Shown piece by piece: positions 5,238 to 57,635 of a stretch of 64,000 bases of DNA (position 1 is the first letter of the stretch; the number at the start of each line of letters is the position of its first letter). The stretch covers positions 3,720,001 through 3,784,000 of the forward strand of contig NZ_AP022570.1 in the NCBI RefSeq assembly GCF_010728325.1. Direction: 5' to 3'. The notes below the pieces were generated by a model that saw nothing but the letters and a program-made list of their open reading frames with translations, was not told where the DNA came from and made no database searches. The position numbers and the translations under genes were made by a program. The stretch comes from Mycolicibacterium poriferae (GTDB lineage Bacteria > Actinomycetota > Actinomycetes > Mycobacteriales > Mycobacteriaceae).

Positions 5238-6353
5238 GTGAGTCTGAGCCCGCTCGACGAGTATCCGATCCACCAGACGCCGTCACCGATCGCCACACCG
5301 GCAACCTCGGATCGGAACTTCTACGATCGGTCCTACTTCAACGTGCTCGATCGCCAGGGCCGCTTCATGGCGCTGACCGGTATCGGGTACTACCCCCGCC
5401 TGGGCGTCAAGGATGCCTACTTCCTCGTCCGCCGCGGCGATACCCAGACCGCCCTGCACTTCAGTGACGCCGTCGACGACGACCGCCTCAACCAGCACGT
5501 CAACGGCTATCGCCTCGAGGTCGTCGAACCGCTTCAGGAGCTGCACCTGACAGTCGCCGAGACCGAGGGCATCTCGGCCGACCTGACGTGGCGCGGGTCG
5601 TTCCCCGCCGCCTTGGAGCGGCCCCACGAGATGCTCACCGAGCGCCGAGTCACGTTGCAGGCGTGCCGCTTTGCACAGGTCGGAACCTGGGAAGGCTGGA
5701 TCGACGTCGACGGCGAGCGGCTGACGGTCGGTCACGACACCAGTGTGGCGAGCCGGGACCGGTCCTGGGGTATCCGACCGGTCGGTGAGCCGGAGCCCGC
5801 CGGTCGCCCCGACGCGGCATTCCGCGGGATGTGGTGGCTGTATCTGCCGCTGGCGTTCGACGACTACCAACTGTTCCTGATCCTGCGGGAGGACCCGGAC
5901 GGCCACCGCAGCCTCTACGACTGCACCCGCCGCTGGCGCGACGGAACCGTCGAACAACTCGACGGCGTGCGCGCCACCATCCACTACACCCCGGGCACAC
6001 GGATTCCCCACGGGGCGCACGTCGAATTCATGAATCGGGCCGGAGACCGCATACACCTGGATGTCGAGTCGAAGTTGTTCGCACCCATCGCTTTCGGTTC
6101 CGGATACGGCGGCGACACCTCCTGGGGGCACGGAACCTGGAAAGACGGACCGTTCACCGAGCGGGTCAGCTTCGACCTGACCGATCCGGCGGTGATGGCC
6201 CGGGCGCCGTTCAGCCTGATCGACCACGTGGCCTCGGCGGTGTGCACCGAAGCCGATGGGCGTACCGCCCGGGGAGCCGGGCTGTTCGAACACGGGGTGA
6301 TCGGCCCGCACCACCCGTCGGGCTTCTCCGACTGGACCGACGTCGCGGGATAG
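5238..6353 (+). CDS. DUF7064/DUF7065-type protein of unknown function
   Basis: A protein of about 371 residues with many aromatic/Gly beta strands (FRGMWWLYLPLAFDDYQLFL, GSGYGGDTSWGHGTW). I place it with the actinobacterial proteins carrying DUF7064/7065, a lipocalin- or hydroxyneurosporene-synthase-like beta architecture often encoded beside acyl-CoA, steroid or phosphotransferase genes. The same kind of region is fused to a phosphotransferase at 14.7-16.7 kb. GTG 5238 is preferred because GGAGGG (5228-5233) is correctly spaced; ATG 5226 is an alternative. First gene of the TetR-controlled operon, 8 nt before the LLM oxidoreductase. No catalytic function can be assigned. Confidence 0.7.
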   Translation: MSLSPLDEYPIHQTPSPIATPATSDRNFYDRSYFNVLDRQGRFMALTGIGYYPRLGVKDAYFLVRRGDTQTALHFSDAVDDDRLNQHVNGYRLEVVEPLQELHLTVAETEGISADLTWRGSFPAALERPHEMLTERRVTLQACRFAQVGTWEGWIDVDGERLTVGHDTSVASRDRSWGIRPVGEPEPAGRPDAAFRGMWWLYLPLAFDDYQLFLILREDPDGHRSLYDCTRRWRDGTVEQLDGVRATIHYTPGTRIPHGAHVEFMNRAGDRIHLDVESKLFAPIAFGSGYGGDTSWGHGTWKDGPFTERVSFDLTDPAVMARAPFSLIDHVASAVCTEADGRTARGAGLFEHGVIGPHHPSGFSDWTDVAG

Positions 6354-6361
6354 GTACCAAC

Positions 6362-7348
6362 GTGAAGATCATGACAGCGCTGTTCGGTCCCACCGATGCC
6401 GTACAAAGAGCAACCCTGCTGCAGGAGGCGGGCGCATCGGGCGTGTTCACCTTCGAGGGTCCTCACGACGTGTTCACCCCATTGGCGCTCGCGTCGACGG
6501 TGCCTGGCCTGGATGTGATGTCCAATGTAGCGATTGCGCTCCCCCGCAACCCCATTCAGCTCGCTCACCAGGCCAACGATCTGCAACTGCTCAGCGAGGG
6601 CAGATTCATCCTCGGGCTGGGCACCCAGATCCGCACGCAGATCGAGAAGCGCTATGGGGCCGAGTTCGACCGGCCCGTCGCACGGATGAAGGAGCTGGTC
6701 GGGGCGTTGCGGGCGATCTTCGCCACCTGGAACACCGGCGAGCGGCTCGATTTCCGCGGTGAGTTCTACCGCCATACGTTGATGACGCCGACCTTCGTTC
6801 CCGGGCCCAATCCGTTCGGTCCGCCGCCGATCTTCCTCGGTGCGCTCGGTCCGCGGCTGACCCGCGCCACCGCGGAGGTGGCCGACGGCCTGTTGGTGAT
6901 GCCGTTCGGCTCGAAGCGGTTCCTGCACGAGACGACGATGCCCGCCGTACGCGAGGGCCTGGCCGCAGCAGGCCGCAGCGACGACGACTTCGCCGTGGTG
7001 CCCGAGATCATCGTGTCGGTGGGTTCCGACGAACGCGACCACACCTCGACGCGAATGTTGTTGGCGTTCTACGGATCCACCCCCGCCTACCGACCGGTGC
7101 TCGACGCCCATGGGTGGGGCGATCTGCAACCGGAGTTGAACGCGATGTCCAAGCAGGGCCGGTGGCAGGAGATGGCCACGCTGATCGACGACGAGATGCT
7201 TCACACGATCGCCGCGTGCGGCACCCCGGCCGAGGTGGCCGCACACATCCGCGACCGCGTCGAGGGGGTGTCCGACCGGATCTGTCTGTACCAGCCGGGG
7301 CCCATCGCGGTCGACGCGCTGGCCGAGATCGTGGATGCACTGGCCTGA
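6362..7348 (+). CDS. F420-dependent LLM-class oxidoreductase
   Basis: A 328-residue TIM-barrel protein of the luciferase-like monooxygenase superfamily. Typical segments are SNVAIALPRNPIQLAHQAND, LSEGRFILGLGTQ (cofactor phosphate region) and GPPPIFLGALGP. The combination fits the mycobacterial TIGR03617-type F420 subgroup rather than flavin-dependent bacterial luciferases. The GTG start at 6362 follows the upstream stop by 8 nt, and the next gene starts 4 nt after its stop, so it is the middle gene of a tight operon. F420H2 enzymes reduce activated double bonds or oxidise alcohols; the substrate is unknown. Confidence 0.85.
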   Translation: MKIMTALFGPTDAVQRATLLQEAGASGVFTFEGPHDVFTPLALASTVPGLDVMSNVAIALPRNPIQLAHQANDLQLLSEGRFILGLGTQIRTQIEKRYGAEFDRPVARMKELVGALRAIFATWNTGERLDFRGEFYRHTLMTPTFVPGPNPFGPPPIFLGALGPRLTRATAEVADGLLVMPFGSKRFLHETTMPAVREGLAAAGRSDDDFAVVPEIIVSVGSDERDHTSTRMLLAFYGSTPAYRPVLDAHGWGDLQPELNAMSKQGRWQEMATLIDDEMLHTIAACGTPAEVAAHIRDRVEGVSDRICLYQPGPIAVDALAEIVDALA

Positions 7349-7352
7349 CGAC

Positions 7353-9737
7353 ATGACAGCCGAGACCGTCGAATTCGACGACATCACCGATGCCCGCTTC
7401 GGCGGGAAGGCCGCCGGCCTCGCCGAGCTGCGTCGCCTCGGCCTCGCAGTACCACCGGGGTTCGTCCTCGCCGAGGCCTCCGCACCGAACGCCGCCGAGG
7501 TCGCCAGGAGACGTTTCGACAGGATGGCCGCAGCCGGGACGATCCCGGTCGCCGTCCGGTCCTCCGCAGTCGGCGAGGACGGCGTGGATCAGTCCTTCGC
7601 CGGCCAGTACGACACCGTGCTGGGCGTCGACTCTGTCGACGCGTTCGCCGCGGCCGTCCGCAGGTGCGCCGAATCGGTGGATTCGCAACGTGCCTCGGCC
7701 TACAGCGGGCATTGCACCACCACCATGAACGTCGTCGTGCAGCAGATGGTCGACGCGCGCGCGGCCGGCGTGGTGTTCACCGCCGACCCAGCCTCCGGCC
7801 GACGCGACCTGATGGTCATCGACGCCGTCGCCGGCCTCGGCGAGGCCCTCGTCGACGGGTCAGCCTCCCCCGAGCATGTCGTGTTGCACTCCGATGGCAG
7901 CACCGCCGTCCACGAAGTGACCGGGTCGGCCGTCCTGACCGCCCGGGACGTCGACGACATCCGGGCGGGAGCGCTGCGGGCCGCGCAGCACTGGGGCCGA
8001 CCACTGGATCTGGAATGGGCGATCGACCGGTCCGGGCGTCTGTGGTGGTTGCAGGCACGCCCGATCACGACGCTGCCCGGGGACCTCAACGAGATGGACT
8101 CCCCGGTGGCTGGGGCCACCCACGTCTACACCCGCTGCAACATCGGCGAGATGATGCCGGGCGCCTTCTGTCCGTTGACGGCGTCGGTGTCGGGCTTCGC
8201 CATCGATTACGCCATGCAGATGACGCAGGTGGTGGCCAGGGCACAGCCGCGCTACGAGTCGCCGTGGCTGCAGGTGGGCTACTTCTACGGACACATGTTC
8301 TTGAACATGACCGAGGGCACGGCGCTGAGTTCCGGAATTCTGGGTAACTCCCTGGAGCAGTTCTCCATGTCCATCTGCGGCCGGGTGATCGATGAACTGG
8401 AACCCAAACCGCCGCAGCCGTTCCGACGCAAACTCGGTAACACGGTCAGGCTCACCTCCCATGCGCTGTCGGCAGGGCCGGCGATCCGTCGGCTCGACCG
8501 CCAGATCTCCGGATTCCGGATACCGACCAGCCGTGACCCCCGCGTCGTGCTACGCCAGCTGGAGACCGGGGTCGACCTGTACTGCGACGTCACACTGACC
8601 CACGTGCGGTCGTCGTCACGCGCCGCGGTCGCGGCCAACGTCCTCGAAAGCCGCCTGATCGCAAAGGCGGTCAAGGACGGGCGCAGCGAGGAGGACGGCC
8701 GGGCCGACGCGATGCGCGTCATGGCCGGCGCCGCCGACGTCGAAAGTGCGGTCATGCTCGAGGAACTCGACGCAGTGGTACGCACGGTGGCCGCAGACAA
8801 CGCGCTCGCCGGGGTCTTTCTCGCCGCGGCACCGGAGGTCGCCGTCACAACGCTTCGCGCCGCAGACAGTCCCAGCGGCGCCGCGCTCCGCCGGTTCCTG
8901 AACCGCCACGGTCACCGCGGCTACCGCGAACTGTGTATGCGCGATCCCTCCTGGGCCGACGACCCGAACGGCCTGGGGACGATGATGCAGGCCATGCTCC
9001 AGGCCGCGCTCGACCCCGCCGACCGTGGTCCGGTATCCCGCGAGTCGCTTGCCCCCGCATCGTCGTCCGTCCGGCTGCTTGCCCGGCTGGCACAGGGCGG
9101 CGCGCGTGGTCGCGAGCACACGAAATCCAAGATGGCGTTGATGGCGCACGCACTCAAGCGCGGCTACCGCCACCTCGGCGAGTTGCTCGCCGGTGCGGGG
9201 CGGCTTCCCGACGCGGACCTGGTCTTCTTCTTCGACCGCACCGAGCTGACTCGCGTCGTCGACTCCGACGACCTCACCGACCTCGTCGAGCGCGCACTGC
9301 AGCGGCGGGAGGCACTGGCGTATCAGGATGCGCTGGAGTTCGAGGACGTATCGGTGGGCCGGCCCACGCCGCGGGTCCTGCGGCGGCCGTGCGCTGCCGC
9401 AGACGGCGAGATCGTCGGCCGGCCGGCCAGCCGGGGCGTCGTCGAAGGCCCTGTGCGCGTGGCGAAGTCGATCCACGAGGCCCGCGCCGTCCAGCGCGGT
9501 GAGATCCTGGTGGCACCGGTCACCGACGTGGGCTGGACGCCGTACTTCACGGTCATCGCCGCTCTGGTCACCGACATCGGAAGCTCGGTGTCGCACGGCG
9601 CGGTGGTGGCCCGCGAATACGGCCTGCCTTGTGTGGTCAACACCCTGGTCGGTACGCAGGTGCTCCAGACCGGCGATCGGGTGCGCGTGGACGGCGACCA
9701 CGGCGTGGTGACACGCCTCGACCCCACGGCGTCGTGA
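7353..9737 (+). CDS. PEP-synthase / rifampicin phosphotransferase-like enzyme
   Basis: A 794-residue protein with two recognisable ends. Residues 1-245 form a PEP/pyruvate-binding ATP-grasp domain (GGKAAGLAELRRLG, VAVRSSAVGED, FAGQYDTVLGV, GVVFTADPASG, LEWAIDRSGRLWWLQARP). The C-terminal 90 residues are a swivelling phosphohistidine domain with His748 in SSVSHGAVVAREYG. The middle (NIGEMMPGAFCPLT, RHGHRGYRELCMRDPSW) resembles the central region of rifampicin phosphotransferases and related PEP-utilising enzymes. Expected chemistry is transfer of the ATP beta-phosphate via the histidine to an acceptor, possibly a small molecule rather than pyruvate. Last gene of the operon; a 27-bp tandem repeat overlaps its 3' end. 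Confidence 0.78.
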   Translation: MTAETVEFDDITDARFGGKAAGLAELRRLGLAVPPGFVLAEASAPNAAEVARRRFDRMAAAGTIPVAVRSSAVGEDGVDQSFAGQYDTVLGVDSVDAFAAAVRRCAESVDSQRASAYSGHCTTTMNVVVQQMVDARAAGVVFTADPASGRRDLMVIDAVAGLGEALVDGSASPEHVVLHSDGSTAVHEVTGSAVLTARDVDDIRAGALRAAQHWGRPLDLEWAIDRSGRLWWLQARPITTLPGDLNEMDSPVAGATHVYTRCNIGEMMPGAFCPLTASVSGFAIDYAMQMTQVVARAQPRYESPWLQVGYFYGHMFLNMTEGTALSSGILGNSLEQFSMSICGRVIDELEPKPPQPFRRKLGNTVRLTSHALSAGPAIRRLDRQISGFRIPTSRDPRVVLRQLETGVDLYCDVTLTHVRSSSRAAVAANVLESRLIAKAVKDGRSEEDGRADAMRVMAGAADVESAVMLEELDAVVRTVAADNALAGVFLAAAPEVAVTTLRAADSPSGAALRRFLNRHGHRGYRELCMRDPSWADDPNGLGTMMQAMLQAALDPADRGPVSRESLAPASSSVRLLARLAQGGARGREHTKSKMALMAHALKRGYRHLGELLAGAGRLPDADLVFFFDRTELTRVVDSDDLTDLVERALQRREALAYQDALEFEDVSVGRPTPRVLRRPCAAADGEIVGRPASRGVVEGPVRVAKSIHEARAVQRGEILVAPVTDVGWTPYFTVIAALVTDIGSSVSHGAVVAREYGLPCVVNTLVGTQVLQTGDRVRVDGDHGVVTRLDPTAS

Positions 9738-9818: not shown

Positions 9819-10397
9819 TCACTCCGAAAGGCCCAGCATCCGGCGCGTCAGACTCTTCAGGTGGACACGCAACGTGTCCCCGTCGACGTCGGCCACCAGC
9901 GGGTGCATCACGCACACGCTGATCGCGCTGGACAGGATCGCGGCGTGCAGTCGCGCCTCGACCCCCGCCTCGGTGCCCAGCAGCGTTGCATACAGACGCT
10001 CGACGAACCGCTGGAACGGCTCGTACTCCCCTTGCAGCCTGATGATCACCGGATCGAAGTTCAGTGCGCTGACCACCCCGCGCCGGTCGATGGCCTGATC
10101 GACCATCCGGTCGAGCAGGACTTCGCGCGCACGGGGACCGCCGGCTTCAGCGTCGTCGAGGGCATCCTCGAGCGCGGCCATCTCGCGTTCCGTGATCGCG
10201 ATGACGATTTCCTCTTTGGTCCGGAACTGCCGGTAGACCGCGGCCTTCGTGACTCCCATCGCGTCCGCGATCATCTGCAGCGAGGTCCCGCTGACGCCGT
10301 GCTCGGCGATGAGAACCAAAGCCGCGTCCAGTACCCGTGTCTGCGCCGCGGTGCGCCGGATCGCGCGAAAGCTGCGGACTTCGTGCGGGGACGTCAC
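9819..10397 (-). CDS. TetR-family regulator of the 10.5-13 kb membrane operon
   Basis: A 192-residue TetR protein with its helix-turn-helix at about residues 15-60 (VLDAALVLIAEHGVSGTSL, MGVTKAAVYRQFRTKEEIV) and a C-terminal helical domain. GTG 10397 is chosen because TATCCT (complement of 10404-10409) lies exactly 6 nt upstream, a leaderless promoter, and the operator lies just beyond. A much longer frame to 10601 would run through the operator and into the divergent gene. It almost certainly represses the divergent operon through the long inverted repeat at 10426-10471. Ligand unknown. Confidence 0.88.
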   Translation of the reverse strand: MTSPHEVRSFRAIRRTAAQTRVLDAALVLIAEHGVSGTSLQMIADAMGVTKAAVYRQFRTKEEIVIAITEREMAALEDALDDAEAGGPRAREVLLDRMVDQAIDRRGVVSALNFDPVIIRLQGEYEPFQRFVERLYATLLGTEAGVEARLHAAILSSAISVCVMHPLVADVDGDTLRVHLKSLTRRMLGLSE

Positions 10398-10425
10398 AGC
10401 GTCAGGATAACGAACGATTGACCGG

Positions 10426-10471
10426 GTGGTTGCCGATCGGCTACCGTGCCGAGTAGCCGATCGGCAACCAC
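10426..10471. promoter_or_regulatory. TetR operator: perfect 18-bp inverted repeat with nested palindromes
   Basis: GTGGTTGCCGATCGGCTA (10426-10443) is repeated exactly as its reverse complement at 10454-10471 across a 10-nt spacer. Each arm itself contains the palindrome GCCGATCGGC, so two TetR dimers could bind side by side. It occupies the space between the leaderless TetR start and the start of the membrane operon (10483), ending 11 nt before that start. Confidence 0.8.
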
Positions 10472-10482
10472 GAGTGAGGTTC

Positions 10483-11196
10483 ATGATGCGACGCACGGAC
10501 GGTGAGCTCATCCTCTTCTGGACACTGCCGGCGGTGGCGCTCATCTGGATCAGTGCGTTCTTTCTGTTTCCCGGCTTCCTGCATCCGATGTCTCCGACCA
10601 TGTCCGCCGAGGAGGTCGCGGGCTTCTACCGTGACGAAGCTGCGCGGATCCGCTACAGCATGATCCTGTTCAACTGGTTCGGTGTCGGTCTGGTGCCTGT
10701 GGTGGTGCTGCTGGCCCTGCAGGTGCGCCGGATGGCCCATCGCACGCCGATCCTGTCCTACAGCCTGATCGCCTGCGCGGGCGGGCCTCCCGCACTGTTC
10801 CTGATCGCCAACATGTTCTGGCTTCTCGGCGCATTCCGTCCTGACCGCGCTCCGGATCTCACCATGCTGTTCAACGATCTGGCCTGGATCACGTTCTCGG
10901 TCATGGTGTCCTATCTCATCGCACAGTGTCTGCTGCTGGCGCTGGCGATCTACTGGGATCGCAACGATACCCCGGTCTTTCGGCCCTGGGTGGCCCACTT
11001 CAACGTGGCGACCGCGGTCGCCCTGATGCCTGCGGCGTTCACGGCGCTGGCGCTCGACGGGCCCTTCGCCTGGGACGGGCTGCTGAGCTTCTGGCTCAAG
11101 AACATCGCCATCGCGACGTGGATCATCGTGATGGGAGTCGTTCTCGGACAGACGATCATGCGTCAGCGACGCAGTGCCGAGCAGGTGTCGGTGTGA
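10483..11196 (+). CDS. six-TM membrane protein, paralogue A
   Basis: A 237-residue integral membrane protein with about six hydrophobic helices. It is paralogous to the next gene: both contain a GA(F/L)RPDRxP signature between helices 3 and 4, then a D(L/F)A helix, a (Y/L)WDRN/LLDRN loop and an N-x-x-x-A helix. I do not recognise a named family. Tandem ATGs at 10483 and 10486 follow GTGAGGT; the longer frame from 10426 crosses the operator and is rejected. First gene of the TetR-controlled operon, overlapping the next by 4 nt. Co-expression with oxidase subunit III- and IV-like proteins suggests a shared membrane complex (inference). Confidence 0.75.
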   Translation: MMRRTDGELILFWTLPAVALIWISAFFLFPGFLHPMSPTMSAEEVAGFYRDEAARIRYSMILFNWFGVGLVPVVVLLALQVRRMAHRTPILSYSLIACAGGPPALFLIANMFWLLGAFRPDRAPDLTMLFNDLAWITFSVMVSYLIAQCLLLALAIYWDRNDTPVFRPWVAHFNVATAVALMPAAFTALALDGPFAWDGLLSFWLKNIAIATWIIVMGVVLGQTIMRQRRSAEQVSV

Positions 11197-11987
11197 GCAC
11201 CCGGCTGGCGCGCGTCCGCTGGAACCTGACTCGCAGTCCCAAACGGGAGTTGTGGTTCTCCTGGTACGTGATGGTCGTCTTCTACAACCTGTACGGCTTG
11301 TTGTTCGTCATCGTCACCCGCGTGCAGCCACCGCCGAGCCCCGGCTGGGGCACCCCGACGGTGGTCGCCTGGTTCACCGATCACCAGCTGGGGCTGCTCG
11401 CCGGGTTCGGTGCCGTGTTCCTCGTGGCGGGCATGTGCGGACCGATGAACGCGCTGCTGGCCTACTCGATGCGGCGCATGTCGGTCAGCCCGGTTTTCGC
11501 CTACTCGTACATGATCATGTACGCGCTCGCCGCGGTTCCCGGGATGTTGGTGATGGCCATCGCGATGACGGTCGGGGCACTGCGCCCCGACCGCGATCCT
11601 GAAGTCGTCATGTGGCTGTACGATTTCGCCTTTTTGTCCTTCAGCGGAACCATGGGCGTGTTCCTGATCGGCTCCCTGGTGTGGATGGTCGCAATCCTGC
11701 TGGACCGCAACGGCGTCTTCCCCAAGTGGTTCGGATACCTGAACCTGTGCAACGCCCTCACCGAGGTCGTGGTCGCGCCCGCGTGGATGTTCCAGCGGGG
11801 CGCGCTGGCCTGGCACGGCGCGATCGCCTGGTGGATCAACGTTTTCGTGTTCGCGTTCTACACCTGCGTGTTCATCGTGTTGCTGCGCGGGATGATCGAG
11901 CGGGAGGATTTCGGCACGGGACCGCTGCCGGACCCCGGCCCCGAAGGCGCCGTCGGTCATCGCGATCCGGTCGAGGCAGCTCGATGA
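11193..11987 (+). CDS. six-TM membrane protein, paralogue B
   Basis: A 264-residue integral membrane protein, homologous by eye to the preceding gene. GALRPDRDPEVVMWLYDFA here matches GAFRPDRAPDLTMLFNDLA there, and ILLDRNGVFPKWFGYLNLCNA aligns with the next helix. It differs in a basic N-terminus (TRSPKRELWFSW) and a hydrophilic tail of about 30 residues. GTG 11193 overlaps the previous stop (GTGA), and its own stop overlaps the next ATG (ATGA), so the genes are translationally coupled. No histidine pattern typical of oxidase subunit I is visible. Function unknown. Confidence 0.75.
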   Translation: MSTRLARVRWNLTRSPKRELWFSWYVMVVFYNLYGLLFVIVTRVQPPPSPGWGTPTVVAWFTDHQLGLLAGFGAVFLVAGMCGPMNALLAYSMRRMSVSPVFAYSYMIMYALAAVPGMLVMAIAMTVGALRPDRDPEVVMWLYDFAFLSFSGTMGVFLIGSLVWMVAILLDRNGVFPKWFGYLNLCNALTEVVVAPAWMFQRGALAWHGAIAWWINVFVFAFYTCVFIVLLRGMIEREDFGTGPLPDPGPEGAVGHRDPVEAAR

Positions 11988-12568
11988 GCACAAGTATCGA
12001 GCCGCTGGAGCGCAGCAGACGCGAATTCGTGCCCGGTCAGCCCGACATGTGGATGTTCGTGCTGTTCGAGACGCTGCTGTTCACCGGCTACTTCTCGGTC
12101 TATCTGGTGACGCGCACCCAGAACGAGGAGCTTTTCCTGCAGGCGCAGGGCGATCTCGACCTGCGCTTCGGCGTGTTCAACACGATCGCGCTGCTGCTGG
12201 GTTCCTGGGCGATCGCCCGGTGTGTGCAGGCCTCCCGGGCGGGGGCCTGTCGGTCAGCCCTGAGAAACGTCTTCCTGGCCATCGGCTGCGGCGTGGTGTT
12301 CGCGGCAACCAAGGTGACCGAGTGGGTCGCCGAGATCCGCATGGGCAACACGTTCACCACCAACGAGTTCTTCCAGCACTACTACTTTCTCACCGCGATC
12401 CACTTCATCCATCTGCTGATCGGCTTCGTCGTGCTCGGCGTCGTCGTCTACCAGCTGTGGAGCCCGGCGCGGCGCTCCCAGCAGTTGGTCGAGACAGGGG
12501 CGACCTATTGGCACACCGTCGATTTCCTCTGGGTCCTGATCTTCGCGCTGCTCTACGTCGTGAGATGA
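11984..12568 (+). CDS. cytochrome c oxidase subunit III-like (NorE-type) protein
   Basis: A 194-residue protein with five hydrophobic helices. The N-terminus PGQPDMWMFVLFETLLFTGYF is characteristic of subunit III-like/NorE proteins, which start with a helix carrying the MW-FE pattern. The ending TGATYWHTVDFLWVLIFALLYV is the conserved final helix of the heme-copper oxidase subunit III family (W-H-x-V-D-x-x-W). Subunit III is non-catalytic and binds next to subunit I. No subunit I or II is encoded nearby, so the protein may serve a distant oxidase/NO reductase or a different complex. ATG 11984 overlaps the previous stop. Confidence 0.85.
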   Translation: MSTSIEPLERSRREFVPGQPDMWMFVLFETLLFTGYFSVYLVTRTQNEELFLQAQGDLDLRFGVFNTIALLLGSWAIARCVQASRAGACRSALRNVFLAIGCGVVFAATKVTEWVAEIRMGNTFTTNEFFQHYYFLTAIHFIHLLIGFVVLGVVVYQLWSPARRSQQLVETGATYWHTVDFLWVLIFALLYVVR

Positions 12569-12645
12569 ACCGAGCCGTGAGATGAACCGAGCCGTGAGTC
12601 GACCGGGGGTCGTGAGATGAACCGAGCCGTCAGATCGATCGGGCC
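12560..12645 (+). repeat. 17-bp tandem repeat overlapping the subunit III-like stop codon
   Basis: GTGAGATGAACCGAGCC occurs at 12560-12576, 12577-12593 and 12612-12628, with diverged units at 12594-12611 and 12629-12645. The first copy includes the final codons and TGA (12566-12568) of the subunit III-like gene. The array fills the space before the ribosome-binding site of the subunit IV-like gene. Confidence 0.85.
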
Positions 12646-12658
12646 TTGAAGGGAAGCC

Positions 12659-12952
12659 ATGACGAGCACGAACTCCAGAAGGCTACTGATCGTCTGGGCC
12701 GTCCTGGCCGCGATGACGCTGGTGTATGTCTGGATGGATCACGCGGTAGACGAGTCGGGCACGCTGCGCGCCAGCACAGTCGTCACCGTCACCGCCATCC
12801 TGATCGCTCTGGTGAAGGTGCGGATCATCTTCCGAGAGTTCATGGAAGTCCGTCACGCGCCGGCGTGGCTTCGGCGACTCACCGATGCCTGGGTCCTGCT
12901 GCTCGGCGCCGCCTTACTCGGGTCGTACTTCATCGGGACGGCCGTCGCCTGA
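12659..12952 (+). CDS. cytochrome c oxidase subunit IV-like protein (COX4_pro type)
   Basis: A 97-residue protein with three hydrophobic helices. The central VKVRIIFREFMEVRHAP motif is typical of the prokaryotic subunit IV/NorF-like family, in which a conserved K-x-x-x-I-x-x-x-F-M-E-x-R lies between helices 2 and 3. GAAGGGAAGCC precedes ATG 12659. It is separated from the subunit III-like gene by the 17-bp repeat array but is on the same strand, and III/IV-like pairs commonly occur together, so it is the probable last gene of the operon. Its last 39 nt overlap the convergent antiporter gene. Confidence 0.82.
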   Translation: MTSTNSRRLLIVWAVLAAMTLVYVWMDHAVDESGTLRASTVVTVTAILIALVKVRIIFREFMEVRHAPAWLRRLTDAWVLLLGAALLGSYFIGTAVA

Positions 12953-14722: not shown

Positions 14723-16714
14723 TCACGACTGGTTCTGGTTCCACTCGATCCAGCCCACACCGGTGCGGCCGTCGGGAGTCTCGACGGTGCCCCACGCCCG
14801 CGAAAAGCGGCTCAGGCGGCCGTCGGGTGAGCTCAGCAGCACCGGGGCGTGGCCTCGCAGCGTGATGTCCACGGCGAGGTCGCCGAAGCCGAGTTGCGCG
14901 GTCAGCGGCAGCCCATCGGGTGCGAACGTCGCGTTGGTGGCGATCTGCTCGAGTTCGACCAGTGGCTGTCCGGGTTGCTGCAGGTAGCCCACCGCCAGCG
15001 GCGGCATTCCGGGGATGTGGATGTCGACGCCGTGCAGATGAGTGCCGTCGTCGAGGTGCAGCGCGCTCCACACCCAGTCCATCGCCCACCAGTCCCGCGG
15101 GGCCCACGAATGGTCGCGTTGGCCCTGTACCTGTGCCAGCTCGATTGTGCGTCCGTCGGCGGTGACCGAACCCGTGACTCGACAGGGAATCTCGTACCGG
15201 GGCGACACCCGGTACTGGTAGGGGACGCCGTCGGTGCTCCAGGTGAGGTCGAAATCGACGGCGACCGGCCGGCCTGCCTCCCCCCGCAGCAACGCCGCCG
15301 GGTCGTCATAGGCCTGCCCCTGCGCGCGGACGGTGACCAGGAAGGTGCGCAGCGGCTCGACAACCTCCATGCGGACCTCGGCGTCGTGGGTGCGCACCCG
15401 GGTGTGGTCGTCGGGCAGGGCGACCTCGAAGTCGAGCACCGCGACGGTCGGCATGCCGGGACCGCACAGCAGCGCGTTGATCCACGCATGTCCCTGGTTC
15501 GGGATCAGCCCGAGGCGGATCCATCCGCCCACGTCCTTGCGGAGATCGGCAAAGTCGAAGTACCAGCTTTCGCTCCACAGCGGTTCGTCGCCCGGCGGGT
15601 GGCTGTCCTCGTCCTCGGCGCCAGGCCGCAACGGCTCCGGTCGCGTCGGTGGAGGCAGGATCGCCAGCGCGTCGGTGTCGAGAACGTGCTGGCAGTGACG
15701 CGCGATCATCGCCATGAACATCTGGTCGCCGCGCTCGGTGCGCTCGACGAGCATCGGCGACACGATCGACATCAGGACGCCGAAGAAGCTCTGGCGGCGC
15801 ACGCCTTCGCGGACGTCGTCGACAGTCACGCCGGCCGCGGGTCCGAGCGCCTCGGTGTAGGCGGCCAGCAACGTGTCGTAGTGCTCACGGCGTCGCTCGA
15901 TCGGCAGTGCGCAGCCGAGGAAGTAGGCGACGTCGGTGAACGCCGGACCCCAGGTGACGGTCTGCCAGTCCACGACGGTCAGCGGCCGGTCGGCACCGGG
16001 CTGGCCGAACAGCATGTTGTCGAGCCGGTAGTCGCCGTGGATCAGGCCGCGTGGGCCGTTCCGCTCGGCTTCGGCGGCCAGGTAGGCGTCGAAGGTCTGG
16101 ACCAGCCGTTCGCAGACTTCCCGGTGCTGCTCGGCGATCTGGTCGCGATAACGCTCGATGAATCCGGCGTACAGCGCGGCGATCAGCGCCTGGTTGACCG
16201 GCGACTCCCGATTCACGCGGTCGTTGGCGGCCAGCGTCTGGTCGTCGAGTAGCGGACCGTGGACGAGCGCGAGCTGGCTCAGCGCCAGTCGCGCCTGTTC
16301 TGCGGTGGCGCCGCTGATCTCGTCGCCGACGACCGCCGGCGCGGCGTCACCGAGCACCAGGTCGAAGGCGCCGGTCGCGGGGTCGTAGGCCGCGTGGTAG
16401 CACGGCGCGATCGGTCCATCCAGGCCCGGGGCGGTGGAGGTGTAGAACTCGACTTCCCGTTCGTAGAGGCCCATCGCCAGACCCGTCTGACGGCTGCTGG
16501 GGTCGGCTGCGGCGACCTTGAGCACGACCGAGGCCGGCCCGGCCTTCTCCTCGGCGTAGGTCAGGGCGACGCGGTAACACTCGCTCATCTGCCCGGTGCC
16601 GATCCGCTCGACGGTGAAGTCGCGCACCGCGGCCCCGCCGAGGATGTCGGTCAGCCGGTCGGCGGTGAGGTCGGTGGGACGTTCGATCAGAGGGGGGCGC
16701 AGCGACGACGACAC
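14723..16714 (-). CDS. phosphotransferase-family kinase fused to a DUF7064/7065-type region
   Basis: A 663-residue two-part protein. Residues 1-360 are an aminoglycoside-phosphotransferase/choline-kinase-like fold with the catalytic HGDYRLDN motif (226-233) and VDWQT (248-252), the metal-binding Asp. From about residue 390 the protein changes to a beta-rich region (WSESWYFDFADLRKDVGGWI, YEIPCRVTGSV, GQRDHSWAPRDWWAMDWVW, HGVDIHIPGMP) resembling the stand-alone protein at 5238-6353. The kinase part probably phosphorylates a small hydrophobic or CoA-linked alcohol; the partner domain may bind the substrate (inference). A paralogous kinase without the second part is at 59013-60077. A perfect palindrome lies 54 nt upstream. 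Confidence 0.82.
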   Translation of the reverse strand: MSSSLRPPLIERPTDLTADRLTDILGGAAVRDFTVERIGTGQMSECYRVALTYAEEKAGPASVVLKVAAADPSSRQTGLAMGLYEREVEFYTSTAPGLDGPIAPCYHAAYDPATGAFDLVLGDAAPAVVGDEISGATAEQARLALSQLALVHGPLLDDQTLAANDRVNRESPVNQALIAALYAGFIERYRDQIAEQHREVCERLVQTFDAYLAAEAERNGPRGLIHGDYRLDNMLFGQPGADRPLTVVDWQTVTWGPAFTDVAYFLGCALPIERRREHYDTLLAAYTEALGPAAGVTVDDVREGVRRQSFFGVLMSIVSPMLVERTERGDQMFMAMIARHCQHVLDTDALAILPPPTRPEPLRPGAEDEDSHPPGDEPLWSESWYFDFADLRKDVGGWIRLGLIPNQGHAWINALLCGPGMPTVAVLDFEVALPDDHTRVRTHDAEVRMEVVEPLRTFLVTVRAQGQAYDDPAALLRGEAGRPVAVDFDLTWSTDGVPYQYRVSPRYEIPCRVTGSVTADGRTIELAQVQGQRDHSWAPRDWWAMDWVWSALHLDDGTHLHGVDIHIPGMPPLAVGYLQQPGQPLVELEQIATNATFAPDGLPLTAQLGFGDLAVDITLRGHAPVLLSSPDGRLSRFSRAWGTVETPDGRTGVGWIEWNQNQS

Positions 16715-52553: not shown

Positions 52554-55500
52554 TCAGCCCTCCAGATCGCCCTCGGCCTCGAGCATCACCTGGCGCAGGC
52601 CGTCCAGGGTGGCTTGTTCCGGAGCCGCCCACATTCCGCGACCGGCGGCTTCGAGCAACCTCTCGGCCATGCCATGCAGCGCCCACGGGTTGGACTCGGA
52701 GAGGAATTTGCGGTTCTCCTCGTCGAGGACATAGCTCGCCGACAGCTGTTCGTACATCCAGTCGGCCATCACGCCGGCGGTGGCGTCGTAGCCGAACAGG
52801 TAGTCGACGGTGGCCGCCATCTCGAATGCGCCCTTGTAGCCGTGGCGGCGCATCGCGGTCATCCAGCGCGGATTGACCACCCGCGCCCGGAACACCCGGG
52901 TGGTCTCCTCCGAGAGGGTGCGGGTGCGTACCGACTCAGGGCGGGTGTTGTCGCCGATGTACGCCGCCGGGGCCTTACCGGTCAACGCCCGCACGGTGGC
53001 CACCATGCCGCCGTGGTACTGGAAGTAGTCGTCGGAATCGGCGATGTCGTGCTCACGGGTGTCGGTGTTCTTCGCAGCCACCGCGATACGCCGGTAAGCC
53101 CGGTTCATGTCGTCGGTGGCGGCGCACCCGTCGAGCCCGCGGCCGTAGGCGAAACCGCCCCAGGCGGTGTACACCTCGGCCAGGTCGGCGTCGTCACGCC
53201 AGTTCCGGCTGTCGATGAGCTGCAGCAGTCCCGCCCCGTACGTTCCCGGCTTCGAACCGAAAATCCTTGTCGTGGCTCGCCGTTGGTCGCCGTGCTCGGA
53301 CAGGTCCGCCTGCGCGTGAGCGCGCACGAAGTTGTCCTCGGCCGGCTCGTCCAGGTCAGCAACGAGGCGCACCGCGTCATCGAGCATCGCGACGACGTGC
53401 GGGAAGGCATCGCGGAAGAAGCCGGAGATCCGGACGGTGACGTCGATGCGTGGTCGGCCGAGCTCGGCCAGCGTCATCGGTTCGAGGTCGACCACACGGC
53501 GCGACGCGTCGTCCCAGATCGGCCGGACACCCAGCAGCGCAAAGACTTCGGCGATGTCGTCACCGGCGGTGCGCATCGCCGAAGTGCCCCAGACCGACAA
53601 CCCGACCGACTCCGGCCAGCGGCCGTGGTCGTCGCGGTAACGCTGCAACAGCGAATCCGCCATCGCCTGCCCGGTTTCCCACGCCAATCGGGACGGCACC
53701 GCCTTGGGATCCACCGAGTAGAAGTTGCGCCCGGTCGGCAGCACGTTGACCAGGCCGCGCAGCGGGGAACCGGACGGCCCGGCGGCGATGAACCGACCGT
53801 CCAGGGCCCGCAGGACCTGGTCGATCTCCTCGGCGGTGCCCGCCAGCCGGGGCACGACCTCGTCGGCTGCGAACTGCAGGATCGCGGCCACGTCGGCGTT
53901 GTCGGTCAGCGAATCGACAACGCCGGCGTCCCAACTGTTGTTCTGAAGTGCCGCAACGAGTTCACGCGCCTGCTGTTCGGCGGAATCGACAGCTGCGCGG
54001 TCGTCGTGGCCGTCCTCACGCAGACCCAGCGCCTGCCGCAGACCTGGCACCGTCTGTTCACCGCCGAAGAGCTGGCGGGCACGCAGAATCGCCAGCACCA
54101 GGTCCAGCTCGCTCTCCCCGGCGGGCGCCGACCCGAGAATGTGCAGGCCGTCGCGGATCTGGACGTCCTTGATCTCGCACAGCCAACCGTCCACGTGCAG
54201 GAGCATGTCGTCGAAGGAGTCCTCGTCGGGGCGGTCCTCGAGCCCCAGGTCGTGGTCCATCTTGGCGGCCCGCATCAATGTCCAGATCTGCTGACGGATC
54301 GCGGGCAGCTTGCCGGGATCGAGCGCCGAGATGTTGGCGTGCTCGTCGAGCAGCTGCTCCAGCCGGGCGATGTCGCCGTAGGTCTCGGCGCGCGCCATCG
54401 GCGGGATGAGGTGATCGATCAGCGTGGCATGGGCCCGCCGCTTGGCTTGGGTGCCCTCGCCGGGGTCGTTGACCAGGAACGGGTAGATCAGCGGCAGGTC
54501 GCCGAGCGCGGCGTCGGTTCCGCAGGCCGCCGACATACCCAGCGTCTTCCCCGGCAGCCATTCCAGGTTGCCGTGTTTGCCCAGGTGCACCAGTGCGTCC
54601 GCACCGAACGAGCCGTCGAACTCGCCGGCCAACCAGCGGTAGGCGGCCAGGTAGTGGTGGCTGGGTGGCAGATCGGGGTCGTGGTAGATGGCGACCGGGT
54701 TCTCGCCGAATCCGCGCGGCGGCTGCACCATCAGCACGACGTTGCCCGAGCGCATCGCGGCGATGACGATCTCACCGTCGGGGTCGGCGCTACGGTCCAC
54801 ATACAGGTCCCCGGGAGGCGGCCCCCAGTGTTCGACGACGGCGTCGGCGATGGAGCTGGGCAGGGTGGCGAACCAGGTCCGGTAATCCCGCGCCGACACG
54901 CGGATCGGATTGCCGGCCAGCTGGCCGTCGGTGAGCCATTCGGGGTCCTGCCCGCCGCGCTCGATCAGGGCGTGCATCAGCGCGTCACCATCGCCGGAAG
55001 CGAGAATCGTGGTCAGGTCACCCGCTTCGAGGCCGGACGCGTCCCCCACGTCATAGCCGTGCTCGCGCATGGCCCGCAGCAGCGCGATCGCGCTGGCCGG
55101 GGTGTCCAGCCCGACCGCGTTCCCGATGCGCGAGTGTTTGGTGGGGTACGCCGAGAACACCACGCCGACGCGTTTCTCGGATGCGGGCACCGAGCGCAGG
55201 CGGGCGTGCCGCACCGCGAGGCCGGCGACTCGGGCGCAGCGTTCGGGGTCGGCGACGTAGGCGATGAGCCCTTCGTCGTCGATCTCCTTGAACGAGAACG
55301 GAACGGTGATGAGGCGCCCGTCGAACTCGGGTACCGCGACCTGGGTGGCGACGTCGAGGGGTGAGAGCCCGTCGTCGTTGTCGTCCCACTGGGCGCGCGA
55401 GCTGGTCAGGCACAACCCCTGCAGGATCGGCATGTCCAGCGCGGCGAGGTGTGCCACGTTCCACGCATCGTCGGTGCCGCCGGCACCCACCGCGGCCGGG

Positions 55501-56186
55501 GTGGCGCCGCCGGCGGCCAGCACCGTGGTGATCATGGCGTCGGCAGAACCCAACAGTTCGATCAGGTCTTCGTCAGCGGTGCGCAGGGACGCGCAGAACA
55601 CCGGCAGCGGATTACCGCCGGCATTCTCGATCGCCTCGCACAGTGCTTCGATGTAACCGGTGTTTCCGGCCAGATGCTGGGCCCGGTAGTACAACACCGC
55701 CACGGTGGGGCCGTCCTGCCGGGCGCCGATACGCTCCAGCAAACCCCAGCGCGGGGTGCTCTGCGGTTCGGCGAACCCGAATCCCGTCATCAGCAGGGTG
55801 TCGGAGAGGAAGGCGTACAGGTTCTTCAGGTTCGCCACACCGCCCTGAGCGAGGTAGACGTGGGCTTGCAGCGCCACCCCGGCCGGCACCGTCGAGTGCT
55901 TCATCAGCTCAGCGTCGGGCGCCTGCTCCCCGCTGACGACGACGGCGGGCACGCCGCTGGCTGCCACCGCGTCGATGCCGTCTTCCCACGCCCGATAGCC
56001 CCCGAGGATTCGGACCACGACGACATCGGCGGATTCCAGCAACTCCGCTAGCTCGCCCTCGACGAGGCGGGCCGGGTTGGCCCAGCGGTATCCGGCGCCG
56101 CTCGCGCGGGCGGTGATGAGATCCGTGTCGGACGTCGACAGCAGCAAGACGGTGGGGGTCGGCGCGGCGGCAGAGGGCACGGTCAC
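52554..56186 (-). CDS. cobN: cobaltochelatase subunit CobN
   Basis: A 1210-residue protein covering the full CobN/magnesium-chelatase H-like architecture: NTGYIEALCEAIE, FSAYPTKHSRIGNAVGLDTPAS, LVHLGKHGNLEWLPGKT, YPFLVNDPGEGTQAKRRAHA, GRNFYSVDPKAVPSRLAWETG, and RRHGYKGAFEMAATVDYLFGYDATA. With CobS and CobT it inserts cobalt into hydrogenobyrinic acid a,c-diamide in the aerobic B12 pathway. GTG 56186 is a likely start (VTVPS); ATG 56204 and GTG 56180 are alternatives. Divergent from cobG; a 34-codon gene lies between. Rv2062c counterpart. Confidence 0.95.
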   Translation of the reverse strand: MTVPSAAAPTPTVLLLSTSDTDLITARASGAGYRWANPARLVEGELAELLESADVVVVRILGGYRAWEDGIDAVAASGVPAVVVSGEQAPDAELMKHSTVPAGVALQAHVYLAQGGVANLKNLYAFLSDTLLMTGFGFAEPQSTPRWGLLERIGARQDGPTVAVLYYRAQHLAGNTGYIEALCEAIENAGGNPLPVFCASLRTADEDLIELLGSADAMITTVLAAGGATPAAVGAGGTDDAWNVAHLAALDMPILQGLCLTSSRAQWDDNDDGLSPLDVATQVAVPEFDGRLITVPFSFKEIDDEGLIAYVADPERCARVAGLAVRHARLRSVPASEKRVGVVFSAYPTKHSRIGNAVGLDTPASAIALLRAMREHGYDVGDASGLEAGDLTTILASGDGDALMHALIERGGQDPEWLTDGQLAGNPIRVSARDYRTWFATLPSSIADAVVEHWGPPPGDLYVDRSADPDGEIVIAAMRSGNVVLMVQPPRGFGENPVAIYHDPDLPPSHHYLAAYRWLAGEFDGSFGADALVHLGKHGNLEWLPGKTLGMSAACGTDAALGDLPLIYPFLVNDPGEGTQAKRRAHATLIDHLIPPMARAETYGDIARLEQLLDEHANISALDPGKLPAIRQQIWTLMRAAKMDHDLGLEDRPDEDSFDDMLLHVDGWLCEIKDVQIRDGLHILGSAPAGESELDLVLAILRARQLFGGEQTVPGLRQALGLREDGHDDRAAVDSAEQQARELVAALQNNSWDAGVVDSLTDNADVAAILQFAADEVVPRLAGTAEEIDQVLRALDGRFIAAGPSGSPLRGLVNVLPTGRNFYSVDPKAVPSRLAWETGQAMADSLLQRYRDDHGRWPESVGLSVWGTSAMRTAGDDIAEVFALLGVRPIWDDASRRVVDLEPMTLAELGRPRIDVTVRISGFFRDAFPHVVAMLDDAVRLVADLDEPAEDNFVRAHAQADLSEHGDQRRATTRIFGSKPGTYGAGLLQLIDSRNWRDDADLAEVYTAWGGFAYGRGLDGCAATDDMNRAYRRIAVAAKNTDTREHDIADSDDYFQYHGGMVATVRALTGKAPAAYIGDNTRPESVRTRTLSEETTRVFRARVVNPRWMTAMRRHGYKGAFEMAATVDYLFGYDATAGVMADWMYEQLSASYVLDEENRKFLSESNPWALHGMAERLLEAAGRGMWAAPEQATLDGLRQVMLEAEGDLEG

Positions 56187-56244
56187 CCCCCATTCGTACC
56201 GCACACGCGCCGGCGGCGGCCGCGCAGACGCCCGCGCGGCAGGC

Positions 56245-56349
56245 TCAGCGGCGCGGATTCCAGCGGCTGTACCAGGTCTGCTGGTAGGGGTTTCCGATCA
56301 GCACTGCGAGCAGCAGAATGACCGCCGCGAACATGAGGAGTGCGAACAT
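56245..56349 (-). CDS. 34-residue single-pass membrane protein
   Basis: A very short gene upstream of cobN. ATG 56349 to TGA 56245-56247 encodes a hydrophobic helix (FALLMFAAVILLLAVLIG) followed by a polar tail NPYQQTWYSRWNPRR. GAAGGGA lies about 7 nt upstream, at ideal ribosome-binding spacing. The tail is Trp/Tyr/Arg-rich and would lie on one side of the membrane. It could be a small subunit or regulator of a cobalt- or envelope-related complex; function unknown. It is 59 nt upstream of the cobN start on the same strand. Confidence 0.65.
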   Translation of the reverse strand: MFALLMFAAVILLLAVLIGNPYQQTWYSRWNPRR

Positions 56350-56501
56350 CGCCGTTCCCTTCGTCGTTCCCGTTGTTCAACACGGGTTCAGTAAGCGGAC
56401 CGTACCGCTGCGATCAGCGCGATTGACGCCCTTGTGCTGGACGGAGCAGTACGGCCTCGATGTGACCGGGATCACCAAGGCGCTCTGGGTACCGTGGTCG
56501 G

Positions 56502-57626
56502 ATGGCGCGGCAACGCGAGAACGACGCCTGTCCCGGCGCACTCCAGACGCACTCGGCCGCCGACGGGCAGCTCGCCCGGATTCGGCTGCCCGGGGGGTTG
56601 ATCGACGCCGCCCAGCTGGAGGCCGTCGCGCTGGCGGCGCAGGAGTTCGGCGCACCTGGACTGGAACTGACCTCGCGGGGGAACATCCAGATCCGCGCCG
56701 TCAGCGACGCCGCAGCCGTCGCCGACAGGCTGCGTGCGGCAGGGCTGTTGCCGTCATCGCGGCACGAGCGGGTGCGCAACATAGTCGCGTCGCCGCTGTC
56801 GGGCCGCCTCGGCGGTGTCGCCGACGTCCGCGCCGTGACGGCTGGGTTGGACGCCGCGGTGCTGCGTGACGACCGGATCGTCGACCTGCCCGGCCGTTTC
56901 CTGTTCAGCATCGACGACGGCCGCGGTGACGTCTCCGGTCTGAGCGCCGATGTGGGTGTGCACGTCATCGACGAGCGGCGCGCGGCGCTTCTGCTCGCCG
57001 GTCGCGACACCGGCGTGCGCATCGACACCGACGACGCGGTCGGCACCCTGCTCGCCGTCGCCCACCGCTTCCTCGATGTCCGCGGAAAGTGTTGGCGGGT
57101 AGCCGAGCTCGCTGATCCAGAGGTCGTGCTCGACGGGCGCGCGCCGTCGAGTGCCGCCGGTGCCACGTGGCCGGTGACCACCCGTCCACCGGTGGGCTGG
57201 CTGGAACAGACCGATGGCCGGATAACCCTTGGTGCGGCGGTTCCGCTGGGCGTGCTCGACGCCGAGGTGGCCCGCTACCTCGCTGCAGTCGCCGCGCCGA
57301 TGGCCGTCACGCCCTGGCGCTCGGTGCTGTTGTTCGACCTCGACGAGGACACCGCCGACGTCGCCCTGCGCGTCCTCGCCCCCCTCGGCCTGGTGTTCGA
57401 CGAGAACTCGCCGTGGCTGGCAGTCTCGGCCTGTACGGGCAGCCCCGGGTGCGCGCAGTCGGTCGCCGATGTGCGCGCCGACGCCGCCGCTGCCCTCGCG
57501 GTATCCCCCGCGGTGCAGACGCACCGACACTTCGTCGGATGTGACCGTGCCTGCGGCAGCCCCGCCGAAGGTCAGGTGCTGATCGCGACCGGAGACGGTT
57601 ACCGGCCGCGGGATGACCACCCGTAG
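56502..57626 (+). CDS. cobG: precorrin-3B synthase (CobG)
   Basis: A 374-residue siroheme- and iron-sulfur-dependent monooxygenase-like protein. It has two nitrite/sulfite-reductase ferredoxin-like halves (ELTSRGNIQIRAV) and the cluster-binding cysteines in ACTGSPGCAQS and GCDRACGSP. It converts precorrin-3A to precorrin-3B in the aerobic pathway. A leaderless promoter is clear: TACCGT (56490-56495) is 6 nt before ATG 56502. Rv2064 counterpart. Confidence 0.93.
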   Translation: MARQRENDACPGALQTHSAADGQLARIRLPGGLIDAAQLEAVALAAQEFGAPGLELTSRGNIQIRAVSDAAAVADRLRAAGLLPSSRHERVRNIVASPLSGRLGGVADVRAVTAGLDAAVLRDDRIVDLPGRFLFSIDDGRGDVSGLSADVGVHVIDERRAALLLAGRDTGVRIDTDDAVGTLLAVAHRFLDVRGKCWRVAELADPEVVLDGRAPSSAAGATWPVTTRPPVGWLEQTDGRITLGAAVPLGVLDAEVARYLAAVAAPMAVTPWRSVLLFDLDEDTADVALRVLAPLGLVFDENSPWLAVSACTGSPGCAQSVADVRADAAAALAVSPAVQTHRHFVGCDRACGSPAEGQVLIATGDGYRPRDDHP

Positions 57627-57635
57627 GGTGAGCGG

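What the first reader, a model, noticed from the sequence alone, without database searches (positions are those of the whole stretch)
10397..12952. TetR-controlled membrane operon with oxidase subunit III- and IV-like proteins but no catalytic subunit
A leaderless TetR gene faces a four-gene operon across a perfect long inverted repeat. The operon encodes two paralogous six-TM proteins and subunit III-like (NorE-type) and subunit IV-like (COX4_pro) proteins. No heme-copper subunit I, subunit II or c-type cytochrome is encoded in the window. The first three genes are fused by 4-nt overlaps. Seen: gene order, overlaps, operator. Known: III- and IV-like proteins are accessory to heme-copper oxidases or NO reductases. 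Inferred: this is a ligand-inducible membrane complex built on the accessory scaffold, with the two paralogues replacing the catalytic core or adapting a distant oxidase.
Basis: partly seen in the sequence, partly recalled or inferred. Interest (0 to 1): 0.78.

Follow-up and report, generated by a model that had tools for sequence, protein, structure and literature searches.

The report
NorEF-like membrane module without oxidase core
A small repressor-controlled operon in an environmental mycobacterium makes two helper proteins of the kind that usually accompany oxygen- or nitric-oxide-reducing enzymes, but pairs them with two membrane proteins of unknown function instead of the enzyme, and relatives of this set recur in gene clusters that appear to break down oily, ring-shaped compounds.

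Summary
The operon is real: tetR <- -> A-B-C-D, with A/B and B/C overlapping by 4 nt. The 19-bp inverted repeat is two copies of one near-palindromic box; all 73 divergent tetR-A gaps of relatives carry a box core (<=1 mismatch; shuffles: mean 1.5 of 73), 51 carry two or more. C is a complete subunit III of NorE type (it groups with NorE, not CtaE/CyoC). D is COX4_pro (NorF-like). A and B are paralogues, distantly DUF4386-like; the 6-TM model of A has no confident PDB match and neither has a conserved His. They do not look like a replaced catalytic core.
The module recurs as A-B-C-D or A-C-D in Actinomycetota and Proteobacteria. No heme-copper subunit I was found near 109 module C genes, while the same queries found it in 7 of 7 comparison loci. 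Across 59 same-genus genomes, A number tracks COX3 (rho 0.83), not subunit I (0.04).
Best reading: a ligand-inducible, NorEF-type membrane module handling lipophilic compounds for neighbouring oxygenases. Identity and association are shown; function is inferred. A 2026 paper still calls NorE/NorF proteins of unknown function. Modifying a distant oxidase remains possible.

The parts
9819..10397 (-). TetR-family repressor gene, divergent from the operon
   Evidence: PF00440 E 2.6e-15; a TetR hit is present in 77 of 80 related loci
10426..10471 (.). operator: two near-palindromic boxes TWGCCGATCGGCWA (10430-10443 and 10454-10467), together a 19-bp perfect inverted repeat with 8-bp spacer
   Evidence: exact box only here in the genome
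10483..11196 (+). A: 6-TM membrane protein, distant DUF4386-like
   Evidence: AF2 model mean pLDDT 94.8; 2091 homologues at E <= 0.001; relatives hit PF14329 over cut-off
11193..11987 (+). B: paralogue of A; own supported clade
   Evidence: E 5e-17 to A; tree
11984..12568 (+). C: NorE-type subunit III-like protein (COX3 superfamily)
   Evidence: PF00510; tree; residues invariant in all 42 compared rows kept; AF2/Foldseek match to actinobacterial aa3 supercomplex chains, TM 0.83
12659..12952 (+). D: COX4_pro, NorF-like small membrane protein
   Evidence: PF03626 over cut-off; a D match within 1 kb of C in 79 of 80 related loci
5831..9737 (+). upstream context: luciferase-like monooxygenase (ORF 5831-7345; its true start is probably further in) and PPDK_N/PEP-utilizer protein (7335-9737)
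14726..16714 (-). downstream context: APH/ecdysteroid-kinase-like protein with DUF7065/DUF7064

Best explanation
A TetR-controlled inner-membrane module in which a NorE/NorF-type pair (C, D) works with one or two DUF4386-like 6-TM proteins (A, B) and not with its own heme-copper enzyme. The TetR repressor sits on two adjacent palindromic boxes and is released by a small ligand, presumably a substrate or intermediate of the neighbouring catabolic genes. The membrane complex then takes up, holds or passes on a lipophilic small molecule (the substrate, or the O2 needed by the oxygenases) on the periplasmic/outer-leaflet side of the bilayer, for enzymes such as P450s, FAD oxidoreductases or luciferase-like monooxygenases. 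Shown: operon, operator conservation, identity of C and D, paralogy of A and B, recurrence without subunit I in the loci examined, catabolic neighbours. Inferred: complex formation, repression and ligand release, side of the membrane, and the handling function.
For: Conserved module: A within 3 kb of C in 80 of 80 C-selected loci, D within 1 kb in 79 of 80, subunit I within 6 kb in 0 of 80; the same queries found subunit I in 7 of 7 comparison loci that have it annotated or encoded. Operator core with <=1 mismatch in 73 of 73 gaps (shuffles: mean 1.5, largest 5); exact CCGATCGG in 68 of 73. Copy number over 59 genomes: A vs COX3 rho 0.83, vs AveC_like 0.55, vs DUF7064 0.46, vs subunit I 0.04. 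Next predicted gene downstream in 80 loci: P450 in 36, FAD_binding_2 in 22. Plasmid copies beside acyl-CoA, thiolase, SDR, Mce, Rieske or P450 genes. C keeps the residues invariant in all compared subunit III proteins and the fold. The conserved A motifs (PxSP, RPDRxP, GPxAWxG) fall in loops that positive-inside reasoning puts outside (topology inferred by hand).
Against: No ligand, complex, transport or binding data. 45 of 76 A copies in the fetched genome stretches lie without C within 3 kb, so A does not always need C/D. Most P450 or flavoprotein neighbours are convergent and come from related mycobacteria, so they are not independent events. Some contexts are weakly informative: rhamnose genes beside the Novosphingobium pLA3 copy, Tn3 transposase and recombinase genes beside the Sphingobium amiense copy, though an acyl-CoA dehydrogenase gene follows. 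The own genome has no AveC_like gene, so the AveC link does not apply to the window itself.
Confidence: 0.4

Rival explanations
1. C and D replace or join CtaE/CtaF in the aa3 oxidase encoded elsewhere and retune it while the catabolic pathway runs; A/B are adaptors.
For: C retains the subunit III residues and fold, best PDB matches being actinobacterial aa3 supercomplex chains. All 59 genus genomes, and G053, G117 and G049, have subunit I. The own genome has four COX1 genes.
Against: C groups with NorE, not CtaE; CtaE model score 69 bits against a cut-off of 190. A number is uncorrelated with COX1 matches (rho 0.04) and with CtaD-type genes counted by hand (0.04); COX3 with these is 0.16 (p 0.23) and 0.19 (p 0.15). 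G257 has 11 COX3 and 2 COX1; G275 has 8 and 1. No subunit I nearby in 109 module C genes.
Confidence: 0.17
2. A and B are themselves integral-membrane enzymes (acid/base catalysis on a lipophilic substrate, like AveC spirocyclase or membrane terpene cyclases) and C/D form their scaffold.
For: A copies sit among AveC_like genes in islands of other genomes. Nearly invariant charged residues R83, R119, D132, D159 in A. Large copy number with much divergence.
Against: No sequence or confident fold match to any enzyme. Location of the charged residues in one pocket was not computed. The analogy with terpene cyclases is from memory.
Confidence: 0.15
3. The module handles diatomic gas (O2 or NO), as NorEF might in denitrifiers: a gas reservoir or route, or NO tolerance, for membrane-bound oxygenases.
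For: C groups with NorE. NorE homologues occur in annotated nor clusters on plasmids. A subunit III lipid/O2 role is recalled from memory; the one paper search for it returned nothing.
Against: NorE and NorF are reported without effect on heterologous cNOR expression (passage of PMC9976466). In the 18 genus genomes with a second, longer COX1 class (about 780-840 aa frames, perhaps quinol-type NO reductase; not verified) A is not more numerous (median 2 against 3, p 0.30). Gas handling does not explain the expansion of A.
Confidence: 0.15
4. An ordinary, non-specific membrane stress operon (envelope protection against solvent-like compounds), not tied to any pathway.
For: TetR-divergent membrane operons are often of this kind (general knowledge); one local regulator, no wider regulon seen.
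Against: Repeated catabolic neighbourhoods and copy-number correlation with catabolic families.
Confidence: 0.13

Closest known systems
NorE-NorF of denitrifier nor clusters (norCBQDEF)
   Same: COX3-type plus COX4_pro-type small membrane pair in the same order; same subunit III group; Lys at window position 110 in 28 of 28 module and 9 of 9 NorE or NorE-like rows against Q/E in 5 of 5 CtaE/CyoC rows
   Different: No norB found near it; instead one or two DUF4386-like proteins; TetR control; catabolic neighbours
CtaE/CtaF of the actinobacterial bcc-aa3 supercomplex
   Same: Fold and invariant subunit III residues
   Different: Separate group, far below the CtaE family cut-off, no subunit I within 6 kb
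DUF4386 (PF14329) membrane proteins
   Same: Members of the A family hit nearly the full model over cut-off
   Different: Window A and B do not hit it; function unknown by its name; none of the 10 papers listed of 515 found held the word DUF4386
AveC-like spirocyclase family (PF17198)
   Same: Found in the same islands of other genomes
   Different: Window A and B do not hit PF17198 at E 10; absent from the window's own genome

Membership tests
NorE / COX3 superfamily (C) | PF00510 over gathering score | tested here: met
   38.2 bits, cut-off 23.8
NorE / COX3 superfamily (C) | subunit III fold and conserved residues | tested here: met
   model pLDDT 93.9; Foldseek E 6.9e-7, TM 0.83 to 7qhm_F; E113, H140, H143, W176, H177, D180, W183 invariant in all 42 rows and position 29 acidic in all 42
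NorE / COX3 superfamily (C) | groups with NorE rather than CtaE/CyoC | tested here: met
   split of 37 rows from 5 canonical rows, 95/97 (midpoint root, long branches meet, one search)
NorE / COX3 superfamily (C) | encoded with norB | tested here: not met
   no NorB, CtaD or CyoB match in window ORFs; 0 of 80 near relatives within 6 kb
NorF / COX4_pro (D) | PF03626 over gathering score, gene after norE-type gene | tested here: met
   45.4 bits, cut-off 28.9
aa3 oxidase subunit III CtaE | NF050119 over curated cut-off | tested here: not met
   69.3 bits, cut-off 190
heme-copper catalytic subunit (A or B) | PF00115 match and conserved heme/CuB His ligands | tested here: not met
   PF00115 finds four other places in the genome, not A/B; no invariant or nearly invariant His
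DUF4386 (A, B) | PF14329 over gathering score | tested here: inconclusive
   no hit for window A/B at E 10; relatives P0164, P0181, P0190 over cut-off, P0178 just below
TetR repressor-operator unit | TetR_N domain and palindromic operator in divergent gap | tested here: met
   binding itself not testable here
known solute transporter family (A, B) | sequence or fold match to a characterised transporter | tested here: inconclusive

The most novel reading that the evidence does not exclude
NorE/NorF did not arise as oxidase or NO-reductase subunits but belong to a wider, mostly undescribed class of membrane modules whose core partner is a DUF4386-like 6-TM protein. They serve to load or route lipophilic small molecules (terpenoid- or steroid-like substrates, O2, NO) in the bilayer. 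Denitrifiers borrowed the pair for NO.
Probability: 0.2. Interest if true: 0.85.

Novelty: new variant of a known kind. Interest (0 to 1): 0.6.

Why it matters
[quoted passage not shown] A conserved setting with a likely ligand-sensing repressor and no NO reductase nearby, in organisms that can be grown on defined lipophilic substrates, makes their role testable. The A family, with at least 42 copies in one genome of the same genus (47 of 78 candidates were scored), is also an unexplained gene-family expansion inside catabolic islands.

Tried and rejected
Mycofactocin link: suggested by one Streptomyces plasmid and a mycofactocin-type regulator near the Novosphingobium pLA3 copy. In 246 genomes, mftC was over its cut-off in 33; 6 of the 8 genomes with strong A hits (E < 1e-50) have it, but all 6 are of the window's family, and G053 and G117 lack it over cut-off (in one search only up to 11 candidates per genome were scored, so its tally of 14 of 246 may be low). 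Dropped as confounded and not general.

Paper searches (listings, unless said otherwise): 504 papers, 20 listed, unrelated, 17 papers, 12 listed, 515 papers, 10 listed, 1 paper, not opened, 0 papers, 1 paper, not opened, 12 papers, 21 papers, 10 listed. Passages only were read of PMC8139620, PMC9976466, PMC13036017 and PMC6152468; PMC12507874 was opened for a word search and gave no occurrence. No paper describing the A-C-D module appeared in these listings; that is no proof that none exists.
Full report
OBSERVATION. The described anatomy is in the sequence. TetR (9819-10397, minus, GTG start) faces A (10483-11196), B (11193-11987), C (11984-12568) and D (12659-12952). A/B share GTGA and B/C share ATGA; C and D are 90 bp apart. 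The inverted repeat has two 19-bp perfect arms (10426-10444 and 10453-10471) and is the longest in the 64 kb; only one other perfect repeat with arms of 12 bp or more and spacer up to 20 bp exists. Each arm holds a near-palindromic box, TTGCCGATCGGCTA or its complement, so the repeat is better read as two adjacent operator boxes.

OPERATOR CONSERVATION. Of 80 loci kept from a C-based genome scan (121 encoded a relative, the best 80 were kept), 77 show a TetR hit (absent in L032, L037, L066) and 73 have it divergent and within 400 bp of A. All 73 gaps hold at least one GCCGATCGGC core with at most one mismatch, against a mean of 1.5 (largest 5) of 73 in 200 block shuffles; 51 hold two or more, 47 of them spaced 22-26 bp. 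The exact 8-mer CCGATCGG is in 68 of 73. Pairs of boxes are seen in Streptomyces (L067) and Frankia (L072) too. In the own genome the exact box occurs only here; five one-mismatch sites are no more than the reversed control gives. This supports a dedicated local switch. Most of the 80 loci are mycobacterial, so these are not 73 independent events.

WHAT C AND D ARE. C matches COX3 over cut-off and D matches COX4_pro over cut-off. C is far below the cut-off of the actinobacterial CtaE model. A 42-row tree separates 28 module C proteins and 9 NorE or NorE-like proteins from 5 canonical rows (two CtaE of the own genome, CtaE of Fischerella, two CyoC) with support 95/97. The root is a midpoint and long branches meet, so the direction is not settled; the 9 NorE-type rows form a clade of moderate support (89/94) among module C rows. 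That clade includes Azoarcus L164, labelled orphan in the tree, which one search shows to have an A gene about 0.8 kb downstream. Seven residues are invariant in all 42 rows and kept in C (E113, H140, H143, W176, H177, D180, W183), and position 29 is acidic in all 42. Lys 110 is shared by all 37 module/NorE rows and absent from all 5 canonical rows. The C model (pLDDT 93.9) matches subunit III chains, TM 0.83. JGI names for many listed relatives of a module C protein read 'nitric oxide reductase NorE protein'.

WHAT A AND B ARE. They are paralogues. In a 62-row tree, the A and B members of the A-B-C-D operons form two clades of 12 rows each (100/97 and 100/100), which fits one old duplication kept in Mycobacterium, Frankia, Streptomyces and other genomes; whether the two clades are sisters is not resolved. 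Distant relatives hit DUF4386 over cut-off, the window proteins do not. The A model is confident (pLDDT 94.8, pTM 0.89) with no confident PDB match. Nearly invariant positions are P35, P38, R83, R119, D132, D159, A196, W197, with W169, G193 and G199 invariant; no His. By the positive-inside rule (my reading, not a tool result), the Pro-rich, RPDRxP and GPxAWxG motifs face outward. These are not a heme-copper core.

DISTRIBUTION. In the C-selected loci, A is within 3 kb in 80 of 80, D within 1 kb in 79 of 80, and subunit I within 6 kb in 0 of 80 (71 of 80 loci reach 5.9 kb on both sides). In A-selected plasmid loci 11 of 11 C genes and in genome stretches 18 of 18 have A and none has subunit I; these two sets were chosen by A, so only the absence of subunit I is informative there. 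The 109 C proteins are all different. As a control, the same queries found subunit I in 7 of 7 comparison loci: NorB in L167, L172, L176, L177 and L180, CtaD/CyoB in L178 and L179. itself counted only three of the NorB loci because two NorE rows fell below its C score threshold. Azospirillum L165, Skermanella L181 and Thiothrix L166 carry C-D with neither A nor subunit I in the stretch. A is not tied to C: 45 of 76 A copies in the fetched genome stretches have no C within 3 kb, and the Streptomyces plasmid copy L089 stands without C and D.

CATABOLIC SETTING. Plasmid copies sit near Mce genes, thiolase/OB-fold and acyl-CoA genes, Rieske and enoyl-CoA hydratase genes, P450 and FAD monooxygenase, or epoxide hydrolase, phosphotransferase and luciferase-like genes; one sits beside rhamnose genes. 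In the 80 loci, the first predicted gene downstream is a P450 in 36 and an FAD_binding_2 protein in 22; upstream MeaB in 12 of 77 (genes predicted by a GC3 heuristic of mine, related genomes). Genomes G257, G280, G278, G268 and G275 hold 42, 35, 28, 16 and 10 A copies, the first three being lower bounds because not every candidate was scored. Stretches of these genomes show A among AveC_like, FAD amine-oxidase-like, acyl-CoA dehydrogenase, APH/EcKL, DUF7064, PEP-utilizer and TetR genes (P450 and enoyl-CoA hydratase there are my reading of the sequences). Over 59 genomes, A correlates with COX3 (0.83), AveC_like (0.55), DUF7064 (0.46), genome size (0.39), and not with COX1 (0.04, p 0.78); without the five expanded genomes the values are 0.79, 0.41, 0.30, 0.26 and 0.16. 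With CtaD-type genes alone, recounted by hand, A gives 0.04 (p 0.78). Shared ancestry is not corrected for. The seven genomes without A have one COX3 (five) or two (two). The window fits: SnoaL, 3beta-HSD-like, SDR, a second TetR, a luciferase-like monooxygenase and a PPDK-like protein upstream, and an APH/EcKL-DUF7065-DUF7064 protein downstream.

MECHANISM AND VERDICT. The most economical reading is a substrate-induced membrane module that handles a lipophilic molecule for nearby oxygenases, built on a NorEF-type pair. Induction, complex formation and function are inference. An effect on the aa3 oxidase cannot be excluded because all 62 genomes tested for it have subunit I (59, 3). [quoted passage not shown] Novelty is therefore a new variant of a known kind, with a bolder case stated separately.

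Noticed in passing
G257:C4 25-187 kb; G280:C1 4.38-4.82 Mb; G278:C149, C171 (L144-L155): DUF4386-like A genes reach at least 28-42 copies in single genomes of the genus, in islands with AveC-like spirocyclase genes, FAD oxidoreductases and TetRs.
   Followed up: partly
window 12569-12658: The C-D gap holds repeats of a unit like GTGAGATGAACCGAGCC; in many relatives the C and D matches are only about 5-25 bp apart, so the gap seems expanded in this lineage (also in L001).
   Followed up: no
G000:C2 69739-78129 (L174): The 216-kb second contig of the own genome carries its own COX3 and COX1 genes about 7 kb apart, the COX3 close to the chromosomal CtaE; the genome has four COX1 genes in all.
   Followed up: partly
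18 of 59 genus genomes, e.g. G294, G281, G248: A second, longer class of COX1 matches (about 170-190 bits, open frames about 780-840 aa), perhaps quinol-type NO reductase; absent from the own genome and not linked to A number.
   Followed up: partly
window 14726-16714: A 663-aa protein fuses an APH/ecdysteroid-kinase-like domain with DUF7065 and DUF7064; DUF7064 matches at E <= 0.001 in 52 of 59 genus genomes.
   Followed up: no
L164-L166, L181: NorE/NorF-like pairs also occur in other settings: Azospirillum and Skermanella without subunit I and without A, Thiothrix with norQ/norD-like genes but no norB in the stretch, Azoarcus with A.
   Followed up: partly
window 52557-58262: Cobalamin-type genes: CobN and CbiC among the window ORFs, and a nitrite/sulfite-reductase half-domain protein at 56502-57623.
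   Followed up: no
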